A stretch of 64,000 nt of DNA from Gimesia benthica (GTDB taxonomy: Bacteria; Planctomycetota; Planctomycetia; Planctomycetales; Planctomycetaceae). Both the position numbers and the translations under genes were made by a program. Below are positions 47,019 to 59,576 of this stretch, piece by piece; position 1 is the first letter of the stretch, and the number at the start of each line of letters is the position of its first letter. The stretch spans positions 7,948,001 to 8,012,000 of the forward strand of contig NZ_CP043930.1 of assembly GCF_009720525.1 (NCBI RefSeq), in the 5' to 3' direction. The notes beneath the pieces are model-generated. The model had not been told where the DNA came from. It ran no database searches and saw only the letters and a list, made by a program, of their open reading frames with translations.

Positions 47019-48056
47019 ATGAATTTACTGCAAACTCAATCCATGCATCTCAAGGCGGGTATCTTCTGTTGTCTACTGCTGTTTGTCGCTCCCGTATTTG
47101 GTCAGGGAGTGCCTCCTGCGCCGGGCTGCGACCAGGAGCCGGGACAATGCGTGAATACCCCGGATTGCACATCCTGTGTTCCAGAGATCAATTACTGGGT
47201 CGTCAGTTCGCGTTGCTGTATGCAGAAAAGCAAATGCTGCTGTCCCTGCTGCGATTTTGAAGTCTATCACTCAGACGAAGCCGGGAGGGTTTCTACTCAG
47301 TCGATGGAGAGTCTGCTGCAGTCCCTGGATCCGAATGCCCCCATCTGCATCATGGTGCATGGGAGTTTCGTCAAATGGGAGAGCGTACTCCTCGATTCCT
47401 ATAATACGTATCTCTGGCTGAGAAATGCGGCCCCGCACCTGCCTTTAAACGTGATCTTCTTTACCTGGCCCAGTGATGATACACCGACGAAGATTGTTCC
47501 CGTCGATGTCAATATCCTGGGAAAACGTGCTGAGTATAACGGCTTCTATGTTTCACGACTGATCGCCGATCTGCCGTCCCACCATCCGATCAGCCTGCTG
47601 GGTCACAGTCACGGTGCCCGTGTGGTCGCTTCTACAATGCACCTGATTGGCGGGGGATCGATTCAGGGTGTTTCCCTGCAGGATTGTGGACTAGAGATCT
47701 GCTGCCATTGTCGGCACTTCCGCGTCGTCTTTGCCGCTGCGGCGATCAATCATAACTGGCTGAACCCCGGGGATCGTTATGGCTGCGGATTGAACTGTAC
47801 TGACTGCCTGGTCAACCTGAGAAACCATAAGGACCGGATCCTGCGGTTCTATCCTGTACTCGCGCCGATCTCGCGACGGGCGCTTGCCAAGACCGGCTTT
47901 ACCTGGCTGGACCGTCGTAAACTGGGCGATGACGTCAACCGCGTGCACGATATCGACGTCTCACAGTGTGTTGGGGGAGGCCACATGTTCCCTAACTATT
48001 ACAGCCACCCGCAAATTGCGGAAGCCATTGTGCCGGCCATCTATTTCAGCAACTGA
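47019..48056 (+). CDS. Secreted Cys-rich alpha/beta-hydrolase-like protein
   Basis: 345 residues. Signal peptide to about residue 29 (FGQG); an inner ATG at 47043 is an alternative start. A Cys-rich segment (36-80) includes CCMQKSKCCCPCC. The alpha/beta hydrolase fold follows: oxyanion region MVHGSFVKWES, nucleophile elbow GHSHGAR (Ser about 195), and a candidate catalytic His in GGGHMFPNYY near the C-terminus. More cysteines (LEICCHCRHF, CGLNCTDCL) lie inside the hydrolase domain. The substrate is unknown. The disulfide-rich character resembles the secreted protein at 4326-4799. Confidence 0.75.
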   Translation: MNLLQTQSMHLKAGIFCCLLLFVAPVFGQGVPPAPGCDQEPGQCVNTPDCTSCVPEINYWVVSSRCCMQKSKCCCPCCDFEVYHSDEAGRVSTQSMESLLQSLDPNAPICIMVHGSFVKWESVLLDSYNTYLWLRNAAPHLPLNVIFFTWPSDDTPTKIVPVDVNILGKRAEYNGFYVSRLIADLPSHHPISLLGHSHGARVVASTMHLIGGGSIQGVSLQDCGLEICCHCRHFRVVFAAAAINHNWLNPGDRYGCGLNCTDCLVNLRNHKDRILRFYPVLAPISRRALAKTGFTWLDRRKLGDDVNRVHDIDVSQCVGGGHMFPNYYSHPQIAEAIVPAIYFSN

Positions 48057-48376
48057 AAACACTGTACATTTCCGCCTGCCAGACCTCACTGTCTACTGTC
48101 ATACCCTGACTGACACACGATGCTGTCCGTCTCACAAGCCGTCAGAAACCGCGAATTTATTTTGCATCTCTCGTGAAAGCGGAGTATTCTGACGGATAAT
48201 TAATCCGCCATGGGACAGACAAAGCACCCCTATCCACCTGCCACATTGGGACTTATGCCTTCCCAGTATTCTTTGTGGATCTTTCAGAATTATTCGAGAT
48301 TCTGAAAATAAATCCGCCTGCTCGTGCATCGTTGTTACTAAAAGCCGTGGTTTTGTTATGTAAACGGGAGTAGATA
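48057..48376. other. 320-bp region upstream of the ECF operon
   Basis: Contains the promoter of the sigma-factor operon. A 15-bp palindrome, CGGAT-AATTA-ATCCG (48193-48207), lies about 170 bases before the start codon and could be an operator. No second gene. Confidence 0.35.
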
Positions 48377-48910
48377 TTGGCCACCGGTAACGATGGCAAG
48401 CTCGCCCCCGAGATCGTCCATCAACTGTTTGAGACTCATGCAGGCGAATTGCGCGCTTTTTTGACGGGTATGCTCCGCAACCATGATCTGGCAGATGAAG
48501 CATTCCAGCTTACCTTTTCCAAAGCACTCCAGTCAGGAGGTCAGTCTCGGGAAGAGACCCGCAAGGGCTGGTTGTTTCGTGTCGCCTACCATGAAGCGAT
48601 GGCCCTTATCCGTCGCGATAAAATCCACAGGAAGTCGCTGAACGATCTTAGCCAGATGACTAGCCAGTTCTGGGACGAGGCACCAGATCAGCGACTTCTG
48701 GATCACGAAAACCAGGAACAGATCCGACAGGCCCTTGAAAGCCTGCCAGACAACCAGCGGGTGATCGTCATCGCCCGTATTTACGATAACAAGACCTTCA
48801 AAGAGATCTCGGAAGAACAGGAGATCCCTTTGGGAACTGTGCTCACCAGAATGAGGCTCGCGATTCAAACACTGTCCCGGCAATTGAACTCACCTTCAGA
48901 TGATTCCTGA
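48377..48910 (+). CDS. ECF-family RNA polymerase sigma factor
   Basis: 177 residues from a TTG start with GGGAG 6 bases upstream. Sigma region 2 spans about 15-85 (LFETHAGELRAFLTGML ... GWLFRVAYHEAMALIRR), and region 4 about 115-170 (ALESLPDNQRVIVIARIYDNKTF, then the helix-turn-helix EISEEQEIPLGTVLTRM). Followed after 26 bases by a membrane protein that fits an anti-sigma factor. It probably controls its own operon and envelope genes; the stimulus is unknown. Confidence 0.93.
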   Translation: MATGNDGKLAPEIVHQLFETHAGELRAFLTGMLRNHDLADEAFQLTFSKALQSGGQSREETRKGWLFRVAYHEAMALIRRDKIHRKSLNDLSQMTSQFWDEAPDQRLLDHENQEQIRQALESLPDNQRVIVIARIYDNKTFKEISEEQEIPLGTVLTRMRLAIQTLSRQLNSPSDDS

Positions 48911-48936
48911 GTCTCACTTGTCCGCCACTGTTTAAG

Positions 48937-49518
48937 ATGACCGCTATGAATAATTCACCTGACAATTTGGATGCAGATCAAACCGGCGACCTGGAATGGC
49001 TGGCGTTTCAATACGTGGCCAATGAGCTTTCGGAGCAGGAGTGCCTGCAGTTCGAATCCCTGCTGGCCGAAAAGCAGTCTGCCCGCGAAGCACTGGTCCA
49101 TGCCACTCAGTTGGTTGCCGGTCTGAAGTCCATCGCGCCCCAACCTGCCGGGCAGGCGACAGTCGCTGCTGCTCAACAGCCGGAAACGACCTCAACTACC
49201 CGTTGGGCCTTCTGGGGACTGCTGACCACCGCCGCCGCTGTAGTGTTGCTGGTTCCCAGTCTGTTTAAATCGACTGGCACCACGGACAGCCCCACAATCC
49301 CCACCGCTCAGACCGAACCTTCTACTGAAGATGCCGAATATTTACTGAGCCTCTGGGCTGAGTCTTCCCAGGAAAGCAACGTCGCGCTCACCTCGAACAT
49401 GAATACGGAAACGGTCGAATATAGCGATCAACAGAATGTGCTCGCTGACAACCAGTCCCTGGAAGTTCCGGACTGGCTCTACACGGCTGTATCACTTCCG
49501 GAAGAAAGCGTCAATTGA
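48937..49518 (+). CDS. Anti-sigma-factor-like single-pass membrane protein
   Basis: 193 residues. The N-terminal cytoplasmic part has a helical region with EWLAFQYVANELSEQE, similar to anti-sigma N-termini. One transmembrane helix at about 88-106 (WAFWGLLTTAAAVVLLVPSL) is followed by a Thr/Glu-rich periplasmic tail. No ZAS zinc motif (HxxxCxxC) is present. Position directly after the ECF gene supports the anti-sigma role. Its stop overlaps the next start by four bases (TTGA). Confidence 0.75.
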   Translation: MTAMNNSPDNLDADQTGDLEWLAFQYVANELSEQECLQFESLLAEKQSAREALVHATQLVAGLKSIAPQPAGQATVAAAQQPETTSTTRWAFWGLLTTAAAVVLLVPSLFKSTGTTDSPTIPTAQTEPSTEDAEYLLSLWAESSQESNVALTSNMNTETVEYSDQQNVLADNQSLEVPDWLYTAVSLPEESVN

Positions 49519-50201
49519 GCATGCGAAGTATGAACCGTTTCACCGCCGATCAATGTCCGCTTCTGACCTGGGTCTGCCTGTTCTGCCTGACCCTGATCAC
49601 CGGCAGTACGCTCTCCGCGGAAGATCCCCGGGCCTCTGCCACCGTCAATGTTTCCAAAGAAGCATCGAAGAAAGCAGGGGACAAAGCAGACGGTGCCCGG
49701 AAAGAACCCAAAAACGCTGGTGCACTCTCCCCGGAGCGTGAAAAACAGGCTCTGGAGTTTGCCCGCTCGCATCACCCCGAGCTGGCCGAACTGATCGAAC
49801 GACTCAAAAAACATCGTCCCCGCGAATACCGTCGGGCCGTCCGTGACCTGGATACAACTCTGACCCGTCTCGAACGGTTCAAACATCGGGACGGCGAACG
49901 CTATCGCCTGACACTCGAACGCTGGGAAGTCGATTCCCGCATTCGTCTGCTGGCGGCCCAGGTTTCGATCAAGGGGAGCGATGCAGACCAGGCGGAACTC
50001 AAATCACTTTTGAAGCAGCGTGTGGATCTGCAGCTGGAACTGTTACAGCACGACAAGAAATCCGCAGAGAAGCGTCTGCAGAAACTGGAGAAATCCATCT
50101 CCGAGATGGAACAGAACCGGGACCAGCTCGTCGATGCCGAGCTGAAACGTATTAAGCGAAATCTCAAGAAAACCAAGTCCAAAACAAGCGACAAAAAGTA
50201 A
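49515..50201 (+). CDS. Secreted coiled-coil protein in the ECF operon
   Basis: 228 residues if the TTG at 49515 is used (overlapping the previous stop); ATG at 49521 or 49530 is also possible. Signal peptide with TLITGSTLSAED, a Lys/Ala-rich linker, then helical heptads from about 75 to the end (LIERLKKHRPREYRRAV ... SEMEQNRDQLVDAELKRIKR) and a very basic C-terminus. The arrangement resembles Spy/CnxR-type periplasmic sensors that act with ECF systems, but the resemblance is structural only. Confidence 0.7.
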   Translation: MSMRSMNRFTADQCPLLTWVCLFCLTLITGSTLSAEDPRASATVNVSKEASKKAGDKADGARKEPKNAGALSPEREKQALEFARSHHPELAELIERLKKHRPREYRRAVRDLDTTLTRLERFKHRDGERYRLTLERWEVDSRIRLLAAQVSIKGSDADQAELKSLLKQRVDLQLELLQHDKKSAEKRLQKLEKSISEMEQNRDQLVDAELKRIKRNLKKTKSKTSDKK

Positions 50202-50252
50202 CCGGATTACCTTTTGACAGACAAAGTTGTCTTCCTTATTGCAAGGTGTGGT

Positions 50253-53015
50253 ATGAAATCACTCAAACTCTATCGTAGTGTTTACTCTCTCACAGCAGGT
50301 ATGCTGGCACTGGCGCTGTTTTCCCTGACAGCGACCGCCGCAGATCAGGATCAGGTGAAACAGCCGGTCGAACAGCGGTATGCTGATCAGTCCACTCAGG
50401 AGGTTCCCCAGTTCCAGCAGCACGTCGTGCCCTTGCTGGGAAAACTGGGCTGTAACGGCCGCGCCTGTCACGGTTCGTTCCAGGGCAAAGGTGATTTCCG
50501 TCTGTCTCTGTTTGGTTACGACTTCGTCATGGACCACAAAGAGTTGACCAACGCCGAAGCAGAGCGGGTCAACATGAAAGAGCCCGGCAAAAGCCTGATC
50601 ATTCAGAAGCCTTTGAATGAAATTGAACACGAAGGGGGCAAACGTTTCGAGCTCAACAGCTGGCAGCATCGCCTGCTGACCCGCTGGATTGCCGGCGGCG
50701 CACAGGGAGTACCCAAAGACGCACCCAAGTTCGATCGCCTGGAAGTCACTCCAAATGCGATTCAGTTCAGCAAAGAAGGGGAGACCGTTCAGCTGAAAGC
50801 GGTTGCCGTCTGGTCTGATGGTACCCGTGAAAACGTAACCCCCATCTGCCGCTTCCAGACGAACAACGAGCAGATCGCGACCATCAATGAAGAAGGTCTG
50901 GTCACTTCCAATAAACCAGGCGATACGCACGTGGTCGTGTTCTACGATGCCGGCGTGATTCCCGTCCCCGTACTGCAGCCCGTTTCCGATCAATATGGCG
51001 ACAAGTATCCACAGGTTGCTGCCTCAACCAAGGTCGACAAGCTGGTTGTCAACAAACTGCAGAAACTGGGCGTGGTGCCCGCAGATCTCTGTGATGACAC
51101 CGAGTTCCTCCGCCGCGTCAGCCTCGACCTGTCCGGAACGTTGCCCGCACCGCATGAAGTTGAAGCCTTCCTCAAGAATACCTCTCCCAACAAGCGTGCT
51201 GAGAAAATTGACGAGTTGCTGGAAAGCCCCGGCTATGCTGCCTGGTGGACCACCAAGCTCTGCGACTTCACCCAGAACAACTATGATGATCTGATCAACG
51301 TCGCTCCCGTTCGCGACAAACCGAGCCAGGAATGGTACGACTGGATTAAGAAACGCGTCACTGACAACGCTGGCTATGACGACATTGTCGAAGGCATCCT
51401 GCTGGCCACCAGCCGCGAAAAAGGGGAAGACTTCGATCAGTTCACCAAAAACATGAACGCCATTTACCAGGACAAACCGGGGCAGGATTTCGCTGATCGC
51501 GAGCATATGCCTTACTACTGGGCCCGACGGAATTTCCGTAACCCTGACGACCGGGTACTCGGTTTTGCCTATACCTTCCTGGGGATTCGCATTCAATGTG
51601 CCCAGTGCCATAAGCACCCTTTTGACCAGTGGACCCAGAACGACTTCAAAGAATTCCGCGGCTTCTTTACCCGCGTCAACTTCGGCGTCAATCCCGAGTC
51701 ACGCGATGAATATGCGGCAATGGTCGAAGAGCTGGGCGCAGACAAGCTCCGCGGTAACCAGTTACTCCGTGAGCTGAATAAGAAGGTCAACAAAGGGGAA
51801 ACCGTACCTTTCATGGAAGTGTATGTTCCCAAGGCCCGTCCTGCGAACAAGAATCAAAATAAGAACAAAAACAAAAAGCAGCGTCGACAGGGACGCAACC
51901 AGAGCCCGGCTACCGCCAAGCTCCTGGGAGCCGAAGTCGTCGAGATCAACGAAATGGATGATCCCCGTGCTGCATTGATGGAATGGTTACGTCGGGAAAA
52001 CAACCCGTTCTTCGCCAAAGCGTTCGTGAACCGTGTCTGGTCTGCCTATTTCAACCGGGGCATCATTGAACCGGCTGATGACCTGAACCTGGCCAATCCT
52101 CCGAGCAATGCTCCGCTGCTGGATTACCTTTCTCGTGAATTCGTGAAACATGATTACGATATGAAATGGCTGCACCGGGAAATCGCCAACAGCGACACCT
52201 ACCAGCGCAGCTGGAAGACCAACCCGACCAATGAACTCGATGAAGTCAACTTCAGCCACTACATTCCCCACCGGATGCCGGCCGAAGTGCTCTACGATGC
52301 GATTCACCAGGCAACCGCTTCAGATGATGCCATCGACAGCATGAAAAACAGTGTCGGCGAACGGGCCATCGGCATCGCAGCTTCGGGTGTCCGCAACCGG
52401 GCTCTCCGCGACAAGCAATACGCGTTAACGATCTTCGGACGCTCGACCCGGGAAAGCAACTGTGACTGCGATCGCTCCGTCGATCCCAGCCTGCTGCAGA
52501 CCATGTACATCAAGAACGACAACGATGTGTATTCCGCCATCAACCGTTCCAACAGCAGCTGGCTGTTCCAGGTAGGACAGCAACTGGGAGCCGTCGAAGC
52601 GAAGAATGCTCAGAAAACACGCATGAACGATCGTGCCGATCAGCTCAAAGAGCAGGCTCAGCAGTTGAAACAGCGGGTTGCCCAGCTCAAGAAGCAGGAA
52701 GATAAGAAAAAGCAGCTGCAACAGGCACAAAAGCGTCTGCGAACTGTGACTGCAGAACTGAAAAAAGTACGACAGAACGCAGGTCGTGCCCAGAACAGTC
52801 CGGCCAAGGTGCAAACCCTGGAAGAACCAATCTCCGCAGAGAAAACCGAAGAGATCATCACCCGGACATACCTGCGGAGCCTGAGCCGTTATCCCACGGA
52901 ACAGGAAACCGAGTCTGCGAAGAAGTACATTGAAGAATCGAAAGACAAAATGGCTGGTATTTACGACCTGATCTGGGCCGTGCTGAATACTAAAGAATTC
53001 ATGCTGAATCACTAA
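50253..53015 (+). CDS. DUF1549/DUF1553 cytochrome-like protein with Ig-like domain
   Basis: 920 residues from ATG 50253 (AAGGTGTGG upstream). Signal peptide, then a PSCyt1-like region with the unusual heme-type motif CNGRACHG (CX4CH). A bacterial Ig-like domain (RLEVTPNAIQFSKEGE ... GLVTSNKPGDTHVVV) follows. The DUF1549 region contains CAQCHKHPFDQW (CxxCH), and a coiled coil (about 785-850) splits the DUF1553 C-terminal part ending in VLNTKEFMLNH. This family is abundant in planctomycetes and is always paired with DUF1501 proteins; enzymatic function is unproven. Gene 53110 is its partner. Confidence 0.9.
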   Translation: MKSLKLYRSVYSLTAGMLALALFSLTATAADQDQVKQPVEQRYADQSTQEVPQFQQHVVPLLGKLGCNGRACHGSFQGKGDFRLSLFGYDFVMDHKELTNAEAERVNMKEPGKSLIIQKPLNEIEHEGGKRFELNSWQHRLLTRWIAGGAQGVPKDAPKFDRLEVTPNAIQFSKEGETVQLKAVAVWSDGTRENVTPICRFQTNNEQIATINEEGLVTSNKPGDTHVVVFYDAGVIPVPVLQPVSDQYGDKYPQVAASTKVDKLVVNKLQKLGVVPADLCDDTEFLRRVSLDLSGTLPAPHEVEAFLKNTSPNKRAEKIDELLESPGYAAWWTTKLCDFTQNNYDDLINVAPVRDKPSQEWYDWIKKRVTDNAGYDDIVEGILLATSREKGEDFDQFTKNMNAIYQDKPGQDFADREHMPYYWARRNFRNPDDRVLGFAYTFLGIRIQCAQCHKHPFDQWTQNDFKEFRGFFTRVNFGVNPESRDEYAAMVEELGADKLRGNQLLRELNKKVNKGETVPFMEVYVPKARPANKNQNKNKNKKQRRQGRNQSPATAKLLGAEVVEINEMDDPRAALMEWLRRENNPFFAKAFVNRVWSAYFNRGIIEPADDLNLANPPSNAPLLDYLSREFVKHDYDMKWLHREIANSDTYQRSWKTNPTNELDEVNFSHYIPHRMPAEVLYDAIHQATASDDAIDSMKNSVGERAIGIAASGVRNRALRDKQYALTIFGRSTRESNCDCDRSVDPSLLQTMYIKNDNDVYSAINRSNSSWLFQVGQQLGAVEAKNAQKTRMNDRADQLKEQAQQLKQRVAQLKKQEDKKKQLQQAQKRLRTVTAELKKVRQNAGRAQNSPAKVQTLEEPISAEKTEEIITRTYLRSLSRYPTEQETESAKKYIEESKDKMAGIYDLIWAVLNTKEFMLNH

Positions 53016-53109
53016 ACCGCTTCAGCAGACAAGAACCATATTAAAACAATTACATCCACACACAGCCTGAACGCAGTGATTCAGGCACCTCATTCTGAAA
53101 GGAACTCTA

Positions 53110-54408
53110 ATGGCCGTATCTATGACATGCGATGGAGTGAAGCGCCGCGACTTTTTGAAAATCGGGACTCTCGGTTTTACCGGGCTGACACTCTCCTCTT
53201 ACCTGCGGATGGTGGATGCCGGCGAAGCGAAACCGAAGCAGGCGACTTCCGCCATCTTCATCGAGCTTTCCGGCGGTCCGTCCCACATGGATACCTTCGA
53301 CCTCAAACCGGAATCATCCAGTGAATACCGGGGCGAATTCAAGCAGATCAAAACGAATGTGAGTGGCATCGAAATCTCCGAGCATCTGCCCAAGCTGGCT
53401 TCCTGCATGGACAAGTACGCTCTGCTGCGGGGTGTCTCTCACTCCGTCGCCGCGCATGCTTTGGGTCGCGAATATGTCAATACCGGCAGCCGTCCGCTGC
53501 CTTCACTGGAATACCCGGGATATGGTGCGGTCTTCACGAAGGAATATCCAGGACCGGCTAACCTGCCGCCTTATGTTTCGATTCCGAACTCCACTCAGAA
53601 ACCAGGCTTCCTGGGAGTGAAGTACGCTCCGCTTAATACCGGCGCGACTCCTCGTCCCGGTCAGCCGTTCAACGTGCGTGGCATTTCACTGCGTTCAGGA
53701 TTGACCGTCGAAAACATCGAACGCCGCGAGACACTGCTGCGGGATATCGACCAGACTTTCAACAGCCTGGAAAAGAATTCGCAGTTGATCGAAGGTCTGG
53801 ATCGTTTTGGACAGCAGGCGCATGCCATTATCACTTCCAAGCGTGCCCGTGATGCCTTCGACATTTCGAAAGAATCGCCGGCATTCACGAAACAGTTCGG
53901 CGAATCAAGTTTTGGTCAGAGCTGTCTGCTGGCATCGCGGCTGGTGGAATCTGGCGTGCGGTTCGTCACAGTCTCCATGGGGGGCTGGGATACACACCGC
54001 AACAACTGGGAGAGCCTGGAAAATCGCCTGCTGCCTCCCTTCGATGAAGGGCTGTCTGCTCTCTTCAACGGACTGGCTGAAAAGGGGCTGCTGGAAACCA
54101 CGGCTGTGTACGTCACCGGGGAATTCGGACGTACTCCCAAGATCAACACGCAGCGTGGCGGACGGGATCACTACCCCCGTTGTATGTTCATGCTGATGGC
54201 AGGTGGCATGGTCAAAGGCGGCCAGGTCATCGGTAAAAGTACCGCCAATGGGACTGAGCCTGCCGACGCCGGTCGGTCTCCCGACGATGTTGCTGCTTCC
54301 TTCTACCACAACCTGGGGATTGACTTTACCCGGGAATACCACACGAACACCGGTCGTCCGATCACAATCGTACGCGATGGTTCTGTGATTAACGAACTGT
54401 TCAGCTAG
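53110..54408 (+). CDS. DUF1501 protein, Tat-exported
   Basis: 432 residues with GAAAGGAA before the ATG. Twin-arginine signal KRRDFLKIG. DUF1501 (sulfatase/alkaline-phosphatase-like fold) motifs: IELSGGPSHMDTFDLKP, SMGGWDTHRNNW, VTGEFGRTPKIN and RGGRDHYPRCMFMLMAGG, which supply likely metal ligands. Exported partner of the DUF1549/DUF1553 protein in the same operon. Activity is unknown in the literature I know. Confidence 0.93.
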   Translation: MAVSMTCDGVKRRDFLKIGTLGFTGLTLSSYLRMVDAGEAKPKQATSAIFIELSGGPSHMDTFDLKPESSSEYRGEFKQIKTNVSGIEISEHLPKLASCMDKYALLRGVSHSVAAHALGREYVNTGSRPLPSLEYPGYGAVFTKEYPGPANLPPYVSIPNSTQKPGFLGVKYAPLNTGATPRPGQPFNVRGISLRSGLTVENIERRETLLRDIDQTFNSLEKNSQLIEGLDRFGQQAHAIITSKRARDAFDISKESPAFTKQFGESSFGQSCLLASRLVESGVRFVTVSMGGWDTHRNNWESLENRLLPPFDEGLSALFNGLAEKGLLETTAVYVTGEFGRTPKINTQRGGRDHYPRCMFMLMAGGMVKGGQVIGKSTANGTEPADAGRSPDDVAASFYHNLGIDFTREYHTNTGRPITIVRDGSVINELFS

Positions 54409-54485
54409 AACTGAGCATTGGTTTCAACCGCCAGGTGCAATGGTGTTCTCTGGCATTTTATATAATTTCCTGAGGGGGAATACGA

Positions 54486-54998
54486 ATGTTGAAAGTATCG
54501 AAAGCGCTTCTGACCTTTGCTCTGATCCTGGCCTGTGTCGCAACTGTCGATGCAGCTGAAAAAGGTGCAAAAAAGAAAAAAGGCAACAAGAAGCAGCCCG
54601 CAGTTCGGATCCAGGCCCTGAACCTGCCTGACTCCATCGAACTGAGTGCAGAGCAGAAAGAAAAAGTTGCCGCGCTGAAGAAAGAATACACGCCGCAATT
54701 TGTCGCTCTGCAGAAGAAAAATCGCGAAATTATGACTCCTGATCAGCTGAAAGCCCGTCGGGAAGCCATGAAAGCAGCGAAAGATGCCGGCAAAAAAGGC
54801 AAAGAACTTCGTGAATCTGTAGACGAAGCCGTCAAACTGACTGACGAGCAGCAAAAGCAGATGAAAGAAGTGACTGCTGCTACCCGCAAACTGAACGGAG
54901 AAGTCCGTGGCAAGCTGGAATCAGTTCTGACTTCAGAACAGCTCGCCAAAATCAAAAAACCGGGCAAAGCTGGCAAAAAGAAAAAGAAAAACAGCTAG
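54486..54998 (+). CDS. Small secreted Lys-rich Spy-like protein
   Basis: 170 residues. Signal peptide 1-23, then a lysine cluster (AKKKKGNKKQ). Mostly helical afterwards, with repeated LSAEQKEKV and LTDEQQKQM segments similar to the LTxxQ motifs of Spy/CpxP proteins. Ends in a Lys-rich tail. Last gene of the ECF operon, with the terminator 62 bases on. Chaperone-like or metal-responsive function is only inferred. Confidence 0.75.
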   Translation: MLKVSKALLTFALILACVATVDAAEKGAKKKKGNKKQPAVRIQALNLPDSIELSAEQKEKVAALKKEYTPQFVALQKKNREIMTPDQLKARREAMKAAKDAGKKGKELRESVDEAVKLTDEQQKQMKEVTAATRKLNGEVRGKLESVLTSEQLAKIKKPGKAGKKKKKNS

Positions 54999-55060: not shown

Positions 55061-55098
55061 TCCCCCGATTCCGTAAACCGAGTCGGGGGATTTTTTTT
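55061..55098 (+). terminator. Intrinsic terminator of the ECF operon
   Basis: 8-bp GC-rich stem 55061-55068/55083-55090 with a 14-base loop, then eight T (55091-55098). Confidence 0.93.
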
Positions 55099-55268: not shown

Positions 55269-58118
55269 ATGCGGCGGCACGCGCGACAATCCTGGTTAAT
55301 GCTTCTAATGGCTATAGCAGCATTAACACTCACGAACCTGCAGGATCTTTCCGCAGAAGAAGCCCCGCTCAAGGATCATGAGGTCGAATTCTTCGAAACG
55401 AAAATTCGACCGGTTCTGATCAAACACTGCTACGAATGTCACGCTGCGGAAGCGAAATCGATTCGAGGCGGACTGTTGCTGGACACCCGCGCGGGAACCT
55501 TGCAGGGGGGCGATTCCGGCCCTTCTGTTGTCCCCGGGAAACCTGAAGAGAGCATGCTGCTCGAATCACTGCGGTTCGAGAGTTATGAAATGCCTCCGTC
55601 CGGGAAGCTCTCCGATGAAATCATTCAGGATTTCGAGACCTGGATCAAAATGGGGGCTCCCGATCCACGCAAAGGCGAAAGCAAGGTCGTCAGCCAGCAG
55701 ATCGATATTGAACAGGGTCGGCAGTTCTGGTCCTTCCAGCCTGTAAAGCAATCGAACCCTCCCCAGGTCACAGAACAGGCCTGGAAGCAGAGTCCCATTG
55801 ATGCTTTCATTCGTTCGCAGCAGCAGGCTTTGCAACCGTCGGAACTCGCCGATCGGACGACTCTGGTACGCCGCCTGTATTACGACTTAACAGGTCTGCC
55901 TCCGACTCCCGCACAGATCGATGAGTATCTGAACGATACCAGCGAGGATGCAACGGCCCGCCTGGTCGAACAACTGCTGGGTTCCCCACATTTCGGTGAA
56001 CGCTGGGGCCGCTACTGGCTGGACGTGGCACGCTTTTCTCAGTCGACGGGCGGAGGTCGTTCGCTGCTCTACAACTCCGCCTGGCGATATCGGAACTATG
56101 TAATCGACTCTTTCAACGAAGACAAGCCGTTCCATCAGTTCATCAAGGAACAGATCGCCGGCGACCTGCTGGACTCAGACGACATCCGCGAGCGTCAGGA
56201 CCAACTCATTGCGACCGCCTTTCTGCTGCTGGGACCGACCAATTACGAACAGCAGGATAAAGAACAATTGCGGATGGACGTAATCGATGAGCAGATTCAG
56301 ACCATCGGTCGATCCTTCCTTGGAATGACACTTGGCTGTGCCCGTTGCCACGATCACAAGTTCGATCCCATTCCCGCTTCCGATTATTACGCCCTGGCCG
56401 GCATTCTCCGCAGCACCAGGGTGCTGACCCCCGGTAATGTTTCCGGCTGGACGAAGCGTCCGTTGCCACTACCGGGACAGCAGGAACAGGCGCGTATCGA
56501 GTATGAGAAAGCCCTGGCACAACTCACGTCCGCGCAGAAGGCCAGCCAGAAAGAATTGAAACAACTGAAGGCAGAACTGAATACGATCACACTCGATGAT
56601 TCGTCTGCGACCCTGGTCGGAGACTGGAAGCAATCCACGTTCTATAAAGACTTCATCGGCAAAGGCTATATCCACGACCAGCAACAAGCCAAAGGCAAAA
56701 AGCTGGTCAAATTCACGCCGCGACAGCTCAAGTCAGGGCGTTACGATGTGCAGCTGGCTTACAACTCCGCTGAGTCCCGGGCTTCGCGTGTGCCCGTCAC
56801 CATTAAGACCGCAACCGGTCAACAGACAGTGTATGTCAACCAGCGGGTACAACCGACGGACGGCACATTCGCCTCTCTGGGTAAGTTTGACTTCCGGGGA
56901 ACAGAGGAAGAAGAAATCGTTGTCTCGAATGAAGGCACCGATGGCTACGTGATCGTTGATGCGATCCGTTTCGTGTCGATTCCCGTCAGCACCTCTGCCA
57001 GCGAAACAGAACCAGAAATCAATCCCGAATACGAGCAGACCTTAAGCAAGATCAAAGCCACGCAGCGTAAAATCAAATCCATTCGGGACGAGATTGCCGA
57101 ACGCAAGCAGAACGCGCCTCCGGAAGTGCCGGAAATCATGTCGGTCTACGAAGGGGAGGAACCTGGTGATTACCATCTGCTGATTCGCGGGAATGTGCAT
57201 CAACTGGGCAAGAAGGTCCCGCGCGGATTTCTCACTGTCGCCCAGACTGAGTCGGCTCCGGCGATTCCCGCTGATGCCAGCGGGCGTCTGCAACTGGCGG
57301 AATGGGTTGCCAGCCCGGAGAATCCACTGACCGCCCGCGTGTATGCGAATCGCGTCTGGCAGCATCTGTTCGGTGCCGGACTGGTGCGAACCGTGGATAA
57401 CTTTGGAGTACGGGGAGAAACACCCTCGCACCCCGAACTGCTCGACTACCTGGCACAGCGTCTGATCGAAAATGGCTGGTCAACCAAGGCCCTGATTCGT
57501 GAAATTGTTCTGTCGCGAACCTATCGGCTCTCGAGTCATTCCACGGCTGCACAGCGTGCTGCCGATCCGGACAATCGCCTGCTCACCCATCAGAACCACC
57601 GACGACTGGATGCCGAAGCGATTCGCGACACGATTCTGTTTGTCAGCGGTGACCTCGACCTCAAGCAGCACGATCAGACGGTTCGTCCCGGTACGAAATC
57701 AGAATACGGTTACGAGTTCAAGAACAATTACCGTAGCGTCTACATCCCGGTGTTCCGCAATCGTCTGCACGAGCTGCTGGCAGTCTTCGACTTCCCCGAT
57801 CCCAATCTGTCTGTAGGACGCCGGAATACGAGTACTCTGTCCACACAGGCACTGTATCTGATGAATAACCCCTTCGTGATGCAGCAGGCCGAGCAGATCG
57901 CACGGCGCGTACATCACGACTATCCCGCCGATCAGTCAGCCCGCATCAATGCCTTGTTCAGGATCATGCTGGGACGTCTGCCATACGCAACAGAGAAGGC
58001 AAATGCAGAGCGATTCCTGAAACTGTCGCAGACAGAAACCGCTTCGGAACAGATCGAAGCCTGGACCGCCTTCTGTCAGACCATGATTGCCTGTATTGAT
58101 TTTCGCTACATTCAATAA
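55269..58118 (+). CDS. PSCyt1-DUF1549-DUF1553 protein with inserted golvesin-like domain
   Basis: 949 residues. A signal peptide is followed by a planctomycete cytochrome C domain with heme motif CYECH (about 55-59) and GGLLLDTRAGTLQGG. The DUF1549 domain has LTGLPPTPAQIDEYL and CARCHDHKFDPI (second CxxCH). An insert at about 445-575, between coiled coils, has the golvesin/xanthan-lyase-type pattern (SGRYDVQLAYNSAESRA, GTDGYVIVDAIRFV). The C-terminal DUF1553 domain has NRVWQHLFGAGLVRTVDNFG. It pairs with the DUF1501 gene 18 bases on. Function unproven; a role in polymer binding at the cell surface is inferred. Confidence 0.92.
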   Translation: MRRHARQSWLMLLMAIAALTLTNLQDLSAEEAPLKDHEVEFFETKIRPVLIKHCYECHAAEAKSIRGGLLLDTRAGTLQGGDSGPSVVPGKPEESMLLESLRFESYEMPPSGKLSDEIIQDFETWIKMGAPDPRKGESKVVSQQIDIEQGRQFWSFQPVKQSNPPQVTEQAWKQSPIDAFIRSQQQALQPSELADRTTLVRRLYYDLTGLPPTPAQIDEYLNDTSEDATARLVEQLLGSPHFGERWGRYWLDVARFSQSTGGGRSLLYNSAWRYRNYVIDSFNEDKPFHQFIKEQIAGDLLDSDDIRERQDQLIATAFLLLGPTNYEQQDKEQLRMDVIDEQIQTIGRSFLGMTLGCARCHDHKFDPIPASDYYALAGILRSTRVLTPGNVSGWTKRPLPLPGQQEQARIEYEKALAQLTSAQKASQKELKQLKAELNTITLDDSSATLVGDWKQSTFYKDFIGKGYIHDQQQAKGKKLVKFTPRQLKSGRYDVQLAYNSAESRASRVPVTIKTATGQQTVYVNQRVQPTDGTFASLGKFDFRGTEEEEIVVSNEGTDGYVIVDAIRFVSIPVSTSASETEPEINPEYEQTLSKIKATQRKIKSIRDEIAERKQNAPPEVPEIMSVYEGEEPGDYHLLIRGNVHQLGKKVPRGFLTVAQTESAPAIPADASGRLQLAEWVASPENPLTARVYANRVWQHLFGAGLVRTVDNFGVRGETPSHPELLDYLAQRLIENGWSTKALIREIVLSRTYRLSSHSTAAQRAADPDNRLLTHQNHRRLDAEAIRDTILFVSGDLDLKQHDQTVRPGTKSEYGYEFKNNYRSVYIPVFRNRLHELLAVFDFPDPNLSVGRRNTSTLSTQALYLMNNPFVMQQAEQIARRVHHDYPADQSARINALFRIMLGRLPYATEKANAERFLKLSQTETASEQIEAWTAFCQTMIACIDFRYIQ

Positions 58119-58136: not shown

Positions 58137-59576
58137 ATGTCAGTTCAATATAACCCTGTGACACGACGTCAACTGCTGCGTTCTTCCGCCTGCGGTTTCG
58201 GAGCGCTGGCCCTGAACGGAATGCTTTCCCAGGCACGGGGTAATACGCCCAGTCCCATTACCGGTAATCCACTGGCACCCCGGCAGCCGATGTTCCCGGC
58301 CCGGGCCAAGCGGATCATCTTTATCTTTATGCAGGGGGGCCCCAGTCAGGTCGATACTTTCGATTATAAACCGCTGCTCGAAGAGAAGAACGGCGAGAAA
58401 ATGGAATTCAAGAATTCCCGCAGCATCGCCAAGACAGGAACCTACGGCAAAGAACAGATCATGCAGTCCCCCTGGAAATTCCGTCAGTACGGGGAGAGCG
58501 GGCACTGGGTATCCGATCTGTTTCCGGAAATCGGACGTCACGTGGATGACCTCTGTTTCATTCACAGTATGCACACCAATGGTGTCGCCCATGGTCCGAG
58601 CACGCTGTTTCTGCACACCGGGACTACGAATCTGATCATGCCTTCGATTGGCTCCTGGATTACTTATGGCCTGGGAACGGAAAACGAAAACATCCCCGGT
58701 TTCATTACAATATCTCCCTCTTACGGCAATGGTGGCCCGCGCAATTACTCCAACGCGTTTCTACCTTCACATTACCAGGGAACGGCACTGGGGAGAGCTG
58801 GGCAACCCGCCAGTGAGGCCCGCTTTAATAATATCACCAATGGTCAGGTTCCTCTGAGGAAGCAGCGTCAGCAACTGGCATTACTGCAGTCGCTGAACCG
58901 CGATCAGCTGCAGTCCTATCGGGAAGATGATGAACTGGCAGCGGTTGTCAATTCGTTCGAACTCGCATTCCGCATGCAGCAACATGCTCCGGGACTGACC
59001 GATCTTTCTCAGGAATCTCCAGCAACACTCAAAATGTACGGCATTGGGGATGAAGCAACCGACGACTTTGGACGCCAGTGCCTGCTGGCACGTCGAATGG
59101 CTGAGGCGGGGACCCGCTATATTCAGGTCAACTATTCTGATAATGCGAATACACCCCGCTGGGACCAGCACAGCAAAATTCAGAAGCACGAGATCCACGC
59201 CCGGGCAACCGACAAGCCGGTCGCGGGGTTGATCGCTGATATGAAACAGCGCGGTCTACTGGAAGACACTCTGATCTGGTGGGGAGGCGAATTCGGTCGT
59301 AACCCATTCAAACAGGGCGCCGATGGTCGCGATCACAATCCGAAAGGCTTTACCCATTTCCTGTGTGGCGGCGGTGTCAAACCTGGTTTTTCCTTTGGGG
59401 CGACCGATGAATTCGGGCATGAAGCGGTCGAGAATAAGGTCCACATGCACGACATGCACGCCACGCTGCTGCACCTGCTGGGGATCGATCATGAAAAGCT
59501 GACCTACCGACACGCCGGTCGCGACTTCCGCCTGACCGATGTGGAAGGTCGCATCGTCCACGATCTGTTCGCCTGA
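58137..59576 (+). CDS. DUF1501 protein, Tat-exported, second copy
   Basis: 479 residues. N-terminal twin-arginine-like signal TRRQLLRSSACGFGALAL. Motifs as in other DUF1501 proteins: FMQGGPSQVDTFDYKP, NYSDNANTPRWDQH, WWGGEFGRNP and GRDHNPKGFTHFLCGGG. About 50 residues longer than the copy at 53110 and divergent, so not a recent duplicate. Translationally close to the upstream DUF1553 protein. Confidence 0.93.
   Translation: MSVQYNPVTRRQLLRSSACGFGALALNGMLSQARGNTPSPITGNPLAPRQPMFPARAKRIIFIFMQGGPSQVDTFDYKPLLEEKNGEKMEFKNSRSIAKTGTYGKEQIMQSPWKFRQYGESGHWVSDLFPEIGRHVDDLCFIHSMHTNGVAHGPSTLFLHTGTTNLIMPSIGSWITYGLGTENENIPGFITISPSYGNGGPRNYSNAFLPSHYQGTALGRAGQPASEARFNNITNGQVPLRKQRQQLALLQSLNRDQLQSYREDDELAAVVNSFELAFRMQQHAPGLTDLSQESPATLKMYGIGDEATDDFGRQCLLARRMAEAGTRYIQVNYSDNANTPRWDQHSKIQKHEIHARATDKPVAGLIADMKQRGLLEDTLIWWGGEFGRNPFKQGADGRDHNPKGFTHFLCGGGVKPGFSFGATDEFGHEAVENKVHMHDMHATLLHLLGIDHEKLTYRHAGRDFRLTDVEGRIVHDLFA

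What the first reader, a model, noticed from the sequence alone, without database searches (positions are those of the whole stretch)
48377..54998. ECF sigma operon driving a cytochrome-like DUF1549/DUF1501 pair
Six genes in a row (sigma factor, membrane anti-sigma, coiled-coil exported protein, DUF1549/DUF1553, DUF1501, Spy-like protein) end at one terminator. It suggests that an enigmatic planctomycete protein pair is under dedicated envelope-stress or nutrient control. The two Lys-rich helical proteins may sense or buffer something in the periplasm.
Basis: partly seen in the sequence, partly recalled or inferred. Interest (0 to 1): 0.5.

Follow-up and report, generated by a model that had tools for sequence, protein, structure and literature searches.

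The report
Self-controlled operon for planctomycete cytochrome pair
A small switch protein in planctomycete bacteria appears to turn on its own operon, which makes an exported heme-motif protein and its partner protein of unknown function, so the signal that turns it on could be used to find out what these very common proteins do.

Summary
The six genes are real and end at one conserved terminator. They form a widely conserved operon: sigma, anti-sigma, a new helical exported protein ("cc"), DUF1549/DUF1553 ("psd"), DUF1501 and, in about half of the loci, a Spy-like protein. In 37 of 41 relatives that have cc, psd lies next to it. In 68 of 80 named loci, cc directly precedes psd.

The new result is a promoter-like element, AAATAATC-N12-GCATC, upstream of sigma. 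It has one fixed spacing (38 of 51 non-Gimesia test loci) and is rare upstream of the other genes (1 of 395 regions). In exact form it sits at sigma in 16 of 17 Gimesia genomes, with one further exact site among them. This fits a sigma factor devoted mainly to its own operon.

The anti-sigma tail keeps two Trp peptides outside the membrane. The second is present in 91 of 91 operon-type tails but in 0 of 11 from one clade without psd beside it. Another conserved system fuses an anti-sigma-like domain to a DUF1549/DUF1553 protein. I therefore infer that psd may also feed back on the switch. Signal and chemistry are unknown; no expression data were examined.

The parts
48306..48330 (+). promoter-like element AAATAAAT-N12-GCATC, putative target of the encoded ECF sigma factor
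   Evidence: fixed spacing across the class; exact genus form at sigma in 16 of 17 Gimesia genomes
48377..48910 (+). ECF sigma factor, 177 aa (TTG start)
   Evidence: (Sigma70_r2 and r4_2 over cut-off)
48937..49518 (+). anti-sigma factor, 193 aa, one TM (about 88-110), extracytoplasmic tail with two conserved Trp peptides (W140; P178-x-W180-x3-A184)
   Evidence: (NF052375 E=1.1e-4, below cut-off)
49515..50201 (+). cc: exported all-helical protein, 228 aa, no Pfam or NCBIfam family over cut-off
50214..53015 (+). psd: exported Big_2-like + DUF1549 (PSCyt2) + DUF1553 (PSD1) protein with CX4CH and CXXCH motifs; likely start ATG 50253
   Evidence: (Big_2 21.6 bits, just under its cut-off of 22.8)
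53065..53086 (+). inverted repeat GCCTGA...TCAGGC between psd and d1501, no T-run; possible mRNA processing or stability hairpin
   Evidence: a similar stem in 9 of 9 printed Gimesia gaps (by eye)
53110..54408 (+). DUF1501 protein, 432 aa, with RRDFLK near the N-terminus (Tat-type motif, recalled)
   Evidence: R12, R13 invariant in 29 of 29
54430..54454 (+). inverted repeat GCCAG...CTGGC between d1501 and the Spy-like gene
54486..54998 (+). Spy/CpxP-like exported helical protein, 170 aa
   Evidence: (profile vs E. coli Spy 3oeo E=7.6e-6)
55061..55090 (+). intrinsic terminator
   Evidence: 10 of 10 printed Gimesia loci

Best explanation
This is a self-controlled, largely dedicated ECF sigma operon. 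SHOWN BY SEQUENCE: a sigma factor, a single-pass anti-sigma factor and an exported helical protein (cc) travel together as a three-gene unit; in most loci examined it heads an operon whose cargo is an exported heme-motif DUF1549/DUF1553 protein, a DUF1501 protein and, in about half, a Spy-like protein; an element AAATAATC-N12-GCATC lies just upstream of sigma across the class and in exact form almost nowhere else in Gimesia. INFERRED: the sigma factor recognises that element and drives chiefly its own operon; at rest it is held at the membrane by the anti-sigma factor, whose outer tail is bound by cc (first Trp peptide) and by psd and/or DUF1501 (second Trp peptide); a change outside the membrane frees sigma, the operon is induced, and newly made psd/DUF1501 (with a Spy-type chaperone helping folding) re-docks and shuts the switch. 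What psd/DUF1501 do chemically, and what the signal is, is not settled; a heme-linked redox reaction coupled to an alkaline-phosphatase-like hydrolase is the most likely guess.
For: Order: in 68 of 80 named loci cc directly precedes psd (in L200 the psd frame is broken and only the tblastn match shows it), 5 are cut by contig ends, 7 lack the unit although at least 6.9 kb upstream is held. In 59 relatives: cc and psd both 37, cc only 4, psd only 2 (both at contig ends), neither 16. Promoter: test set of 60 loci, score 11 or more at spacing 12 in 46, at other spacings 0-8, shuffles mean 0.4; without Gimesia 38 of 51, and 0/98, 0/96, 0/101 and 1/100 upstream of psd, d1501, cc and anti. Genus: exact TGAAAATAA-N14-GCATC at sigma in 16 of 17 Gimesia genomes, one further exact site in one genome (positions held). 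The element is found at sigma in 3 of 9 psd-less f3 loci with upstream sequence (L250-L252). Terminator. Tail peptide 2: 91 of 91 operon-type anti-sigma factors by a relaxed pattern, 86 by the strict one, shuffled tails 0.43 (strict); 0 of 11 full-length ones of the f3 clade by either; genome G364 has both kinds. Physical link: anti-sigma-like domain + TM + DUF1549/DUF1553 fusion, end to end in 28 of 59 relatives, own genome included.
Against: No transcript, binding or protein-interaction data were examined. The motif consensus was read by eye from the first set of loci; 14 of 60 test loci score under 11, and the f3 copy that does have psd (L255) scores 9. Other targets are not excluded: AAATAA-N14-GCATC has 8 matches in the own genome against 4 for the reversed control, and with one mismatch allowed the genus pattern has 99 matches in 17 genomes against 28 for the reversed control, 16 of the 99 being the exact sigma sites; by eye no other listed site recurs in more than 4 genomes. 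In L172 (same contig as L081) no sigma gene was detected upstream of anti-cc-psd. Loss of the second Trp peptide is one event on the sigma tree (the f3 rows without psd are one clade, 100/100), so the correlation is weak statistically. The fusion involves another DUF1549/DUF1553 subfamily and another ECF type. No structure match supports any catalytic assignment.
Confidence: 0.7

Rival explanations
1. Ordinary one-way control: psd/DUF1501 are only output enzymes (for example oxidative or hydrolytic use of a polysaccharide or sulfated compound) induced by a ligand sensed by cc and the anti-sigma factor; no feedback by psd.
For: In the own genome 3 further DUF1549 operons begin with an ECF sigma gene and a long protein with FecR similarity (over cut-off in one), one with a LamG domain. 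PMC5615132 (passages) links PSCyt genes to carbohydrate use by neighbourhood. The three-gene unit without psd (4 relatives) shows that signalling need not involve psd.
Against: The second Trp peptide of the anti-sigma tail follows psd, and an anti-sigma-like domain is fused to DUF1549/DUF1553 in 28 of 59 relatives. No carbohydrate-active neighbour was looked for here.
Confidence: 0.4
2. Envelope-stress operon: misfolded or damaged exported proteins are sensed by cc and the Spy-like protein, and the cargo repairs or protects the envelope.
For: The last gene is a Spy/CpxP relative. In Rhodopirellula baltica an ECF sigma gene (RB10049), proposed regulator of a PSC2/PSD1 protein (RB10051), is induced by heat, cold and salt (PMC2754498, passages).
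Against: The Spy-like gene is the least constant part (detected in 38 of 80 named loci, some of them cut short by contig ends). Few exact target sites is narrow for a stress regulon. It is not known whether RB10049 is the same type of sigma factor; one Rhodopirellula MAG genome gave two weak sigma matches (best 3e-12), another none.
Confidence: 0.25
3. The conserved element is a site for another regulator or a housekeeping promoter, not a target of the encoded sigma factor.
For: It has neither the AAC -35 nor the CGT -10 hallmark noted for early-studied ECF promoters (PMC8103513, passages). It is missing or unrecognised at some sigma genes (14 of 60 test loci).
Against: In exact form it is nearly confined to sigma in each Gimesia genome, stays with the sigma gene in 3 loci where psd is gone, is not seen at psd genes without cc (1 of 29 scored regions at 11 or more), and has one fixed two-box spacing.
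Confidence: 0.1

Closest known systems
RB10049-RB10051 of Rhodopirellula baltica (ECF sigma proposed to regulate a PSC2/PSD1 protein; cited in PMC2754498 as from Studholme et al.)
   Same: An ECF sigma gene linked to a DUF1549/DUF1553 gene; the idea that the sigma factor controls it
   Different: No anti-sigma, cc, DUF1501, promoter element or class-wide order was described in the passages read; whether it is orthologous could not be tested
CnrYXH-type ECF systems (sigma, membrane anti-sigma, periplasmic helical sensor; recalled)
   Same: Three-part layout: ECF sigma, single-pass anti-sigma, exported helical partner
   Different: 0 of 42 cc proteins match Metal_resist (the CnrX family, recalled) at E 0.01 or better; no metal efflux pump among the operon genes
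Spy/CpxP family of E. coli
   Same: Last gene: profile match to Spy (3oeo, 7.6e-6) and weakly to CpxP (0.049); LTXXQ at E 0.01 or better in 16 of 18
   Different: Window protein itself is below the Pfam cut-offs; it lies in an ECF operon
FecR-type ECF operons with PSCyt2 proteins in the same genome (L239-L241) and the ECF + anti-sigma::PSD fusion (L238)
   Same: ECF sigma gene closely upstream of DUF1549/DUF1553 genes
   Different: Anti-sigma part is long and FecR-like, or fused to PSD; no cc-like gene apparent in the printed ORFs (by eye)

Membership tests
ECF sigma factors | only sigma2 and sigma4 domains, small size | tested here: met
   Sigma70_r2 and Sigma70_r4_2 over cut-off, 177 aa; solved ECF sigma factors match
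ECF sigma factors | adjacent membrane anti-sigma factor | tested here: met
   single TM, weak NF052375 match below cut-off; adjacent across the class; inhibition of sigma not testable here
ECF sigma factors | AAC -35 and CGT -10 promoter hallmark (no longer defining, PMC8103513) | tested here: not met
   conserved element is AAATAATC-N12-GCATC
PSCyt2/PSD1 proteins (DUF1549/DUF1553) | both domains over curated cut-off | tested here: met
   167.5 and 129.6 bits against 29.8 and 28.5
c-type cytochromes | conserved CXnCH heme attachment motifs | tested here: met
   C80, C85, H86, C462, C465, H466 invariant in 47 of 47
c-type cytochromes | covalent heme | not testable with these tools
   needs heme stain or mass spectrometry
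DUF1501 | domain over cut-off | tested here: met
   338.7 bits against 27
alkaline phosphatase/sulfatase superfamily (DUF1501; clan recalled) | detectable homology to solved members | tested here: inconclusive
   best profile hit S1_8A sulfatase, E=0.034, 38 positions only
Spy/CpxP (LTXXQ) | family profile match | tested here: inconclusive
   window protein 18.4 bits against 24.3; 16 of 18 homologues at E 0.01 or better; profile hits Spy 7.6e-6
CnrX-like sensors (cc protein) | Metal_resist domain | tested here: not met
   0 of 42 cc proteins at E 0.01 or better
CnrX-like sensors (cc protein) | fold | tested here: inconclusive
   all-helical model, no Foldseek match at E 0.001 or better, VIA Z 6.4 or less

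The most novel reading that the evidence does not exclude
DUF1549/DUF1553 'planctomycete cytochromes' are the sensory half of ECF sigma switches: outside the membrane they carry heme motifs (redox or small-molecule input) and pass their state to an anti-sigma factor, either by docking on its C-terminal P-x-W-M/L peptide (this operon) or by being fused to it (ECF + anti-sigma::PSCyt2-PSD1, 28 of 59 relatives). The dozens of such proteins per genome would then include a family of cytochrome-gated transcription switches.
Probability: 0.27. Interest if true: 0.78.

Novelty: new variant of a known kind. Interest (0 to 1): 0.55.

Why it matters
DUF1549/DUF1553 proteins are greatly expanded in planctomycetes (77 PSCyt2 matches in this genome), and PMC5615132 (passages) says nothing is known of their functions. 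A switch that seems to control one such protein and its DUF1501 partner, with a defined promoter-like element and few exact copies elsewhere, gives a direct handle: a reporter on the 48306-48330 element would reveal the inducing signal, and deletion of psd or of the tail peptides would tell whether the cytochrome-like protein is output, sensor or both.

Tried and rejected
Considered and dropped: (1) that the order is a Gimesia peculiarity: refuted. (2) That the promoter element belongs to psd: not seen upstream of psd genes without cc, own paralogues included (1 of 29 scored regions reached 11, two more were too short), and kept with sigma in 3 f3 loci without psd. (3) That cc is a Spy/CnrX relative: no family match; Foldseek and VIA-align gave only generic helical matches, which excludes nothing. 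(4) Fold search of the psd model: the rows shown match the Big_2 region (170-256); the rest is barely tested, not novel by proof. (6) Naming R. baltica RB10049 as an ortholog: could not be tested; two Rhodopirellula MAG genomes gave two weak sigma matches and none. (7) Papers: the 2004, 2012, 2020 and 2021 papers on planctomycete domains and ECF groups (recalled, or seen only as citations) were not read; one search shows that the 2020 one is not held; an existing ECF group may already list this gene order. Searches in which I looked for the operon or its families in print.

Weak points: the promoter score uses a consensus read by eye from the first 32 loci; the test loci are distinct by sigma sequence but from related organisms, and one of the 60 (L173) rests on a false sigma match (22 bits). 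Loci were dropped before that count where the sigma upstream was too short or the sigma C-terminus identical to one already taken. In the non-Gimesia counts I dropped the Gimesia loci, the three psd-less f3 loci and L173. Anti-sigma L250 (118 aa, truncated) was left out of the 11 f3 tails. 'Without psd' for the f3 tails means no psd match within the about 1.5 kb or less held downstream; absence from the whole genome was tested in four of these genomes only.
Full report
WHAT IS THERE. The window is G000:C1:7948001-8012000 of an 8.03 Mb, one-contig genome. I call it Gimesia because two of its unnamed genus-mates hold contigs whose lengths match named Gimesia MAG contigs (202663 and 7193 bases). 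Domains: ECF sigma; an anti-sigma with one TM; a new exported helical protein (cc); DUF1549/DUF1553 with a Big_2-like domain (psd); DUF1501; and a Spy-like protein. The operon ends at an intrinsic terminator kept in 10 of 10 Gimesia loci printed. No sigma-70-type promoter-like site was found inside. Short inverted repeats without T-runs sit in the two long gaps and could set relative transcript stability; this was not tested further.

GENE ORDER. Of the 80: 33 show sigma-anti-cc-psd-d1501-spy, 22 the same without spy, and 13 more have cc before psd with other parts missing, nearly all at contig ends (in L172, same contig as L081, no sigma gene was detected although 5.4 kb upstream is held; in L200 the psd frame is broken). 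Five are cut upstream of psd. Seven (L210, L212, L216, L218, L228, L231, L235) lack the signalling genes although at least 6.9 kb upstream is held. In 59 relatives, cc and psd occur together in 37 (adjacent in all, by the positions), cc alone in 4 (all of one family, f3), psd alone in 2 (both at contig ends), neither in 16. In a sample of 294 genomes of the phylum, 22 have a psd match at E 1e-150 or better, so psd itself is not universal. Thus sigma-anti-cc behaves as one unit and psd-d1501 as another, joined in most of the loci examined.

PROMOTER. Alignment of the sigma upstream regions showed a block that survives between distant genera. Scored as AAATAATC-Nx-GCATCT with x free, x = 12 stands out: 19 of 32 first-set loci (next best 6) and 46 of 60 test loci (next best 8) reach 11 of 14; shuffles give 0.4. 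Without Gimesia: 12 of 22 and 38 of 51; upstream of psd, d1501, cc and anti in the same loci: 0 of 98, 0 of 96, 0 of 101, 1 of 100. In Gimesia the exact form TGAAAATAA-N14-GCATC occurs at sigma in 16 of 17 genomes; one genome has one further exact site; the 17th, 74% complete, has neither the exact site nor a cc match. Against uniqueness: with one mismatch allowed there are 99 matches in the 17 genomes (16 of them the exact sigma sites) and 28 for the reversed pattern, and the looser AAATAA-N14-GCATC has 8 matches in the own genome, 4 in the reversed control. By eye no other site in the list recurs in more than 4 genomes. Weaker targets therefore remain possible. The own paralogous psd genes and the psd genes without cc do not carry the element (1 of 29 scored regions at 11 or more). 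The window copy is 48306-48330.

SWITCH. The anti-sigma tail outside the membrane is variable except for two Trp peptides, W140 and P178-x-W180-x3-A184. The second is present in 91 of 91 operon-type anti-sigma factors by a relaxed pattern (86 strict; shuffled tails mean 0.43 for the strict one). In family f3, 11 full-length anti-sigma factors from loci with no psd beside them lack it by either pattern while all 11 keep an A-x-x-W first peptide. One f3 genome (G364) holds both kinds, and the copy next to psd (L255) has the second peptide. The f3 rows without psd are one clade on the sigma tree (100/100), so this is one evolutionary event, suggestive only. Three of the nine such loci with upstream sequence (L250-L252) still carry the promoter element, six do not, and L255 scores only 9.

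OTHER ECF-LINKED PSD SYSTEMS. The genome has 42 sigma region 4.2 matches (39 over the cut-off) and 77 PSCyt2 matches; 5 sigma genes lie within 4.5 kb upstream, same strand, of a PSCyt2 match, against 0.9 at random positions (5 or more in 3 of 5000 draws). Three others (L239-L241) have a long protein with FecR similarity between sigma and psd (only L239 over the Pfam cut-off). The fourth (L238) has a protein with an anti-sigma-like N-terminus (judged by eye; no Pfam match there), one strong TM and PSCyt2-PSD1 beyond it. That fusion aligns end to end in 17 of 17 Gimesia genomes and 28 of 59 relatives, own genome included. Seven Gimesia matches and one other (G025) have in-frame stops in the aligned stretch that I did not place; the query begins 14 codons before the likely ATG, so they may lie upstream of it. 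Sigma-like genes are seen next to it in L238, L262, L263, L264 and L265 (by Pfam only in L238; the rest by eye); L260 and L261 were not resolved.

PROTEINS. psd: Cys and His of CX4CH and CXXCH invariant in 47 of 47, also H139, H468, C750 and C752; AlphaFold model pLDDT 84, pTM 0.82, low at 81-96 and 744-752; the PDB rows shown match the Big_2 region. cc: helices from residue 73 on, pLDDT about 97 except at the very end, no convincing fold match. DUF1501: invariant GGPxHxD, GWDTH, GEFGRTP and GRDH stretches (29 of 29) and one weak sulfatase profile match. Spy-like.

LITERATURE. PMC2754498 (passages): Studholme et al. are cited as suggesting that ECF factor RB10049 regulates RB10051 (PSD1 + PSC2) in R. 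baltica; RB10049 is up-regulated under heat, cold and salt. So the idea of an ECF-controlled PSD protein is old; the anti-sigma/cc/DUF1501/Spy operon, its element and its distribution were not in the passages read. PMC5615132 (passages): nothing is known of PSCyt functions; a carbohydrate role was suggested from neighbours. PMC8103513 (passages): ECF hallmarks; around 55% of ECFs with predicted regulons were autoregulated. Only 3 papers in the library hold any of six DUF/Pfam terms for these families.

VERDICT. Observation confirmed; self-control well supported by sequence, sole-target control less firmly; the signal and chemistry remain open; sensory feedback by psd is a testable, bolder reading.

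Noticed in passing
L238:4140-6855 (G000:C1 about 4421140-4423854): ECF sigma gene followed by a fusion of an anti-sigma-like cytoplasmic domain, one TM and PSCyt2-PSD1 with a CTQCH motif; end-to-end homologues in 28 of 59 relatives.
   Followed up: partly
L239, L240, L241: Three further operons: ECF sigma, long protein with FecR similarity (one with LamG), PSCyt2 protein, then an ORF in the position of DUF1501 (shown by HMM for L240 only, as L005).
   Followed up: partly
L242-L254 (family f3): Sigma-anti-cc unit without psd beside it in f3 genomes (13 of 61 f3 genomes have a cc match); its output there is unknown.
   Followed up: partly
window 55269-58118 and 58137-59576: A second DUF1549/DUF1553 protein (with PSCyt1 and Golvesin_C) plus DUF1501 gene directly behind the terminator; a psd-type gene follows in the same place in the six Gimesia loci L072-L077.
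   Followed up: no
window 47019-48056: Cys-rich protein with weak alpha/beta-hydrolase (DUF900, below cut-off) similarity upstream of the operon.
   Followed up: no
L093:9168-9752: A second sigma-like gene on the opposite strand directly behind d1501 in genome G054.
   Followed up: no
psd residues 750-752: Invariant C-x-C (NCDC) in a low-confidence loop of the model, besides the two heme motifs; a possible metal site.
   Followed up: no
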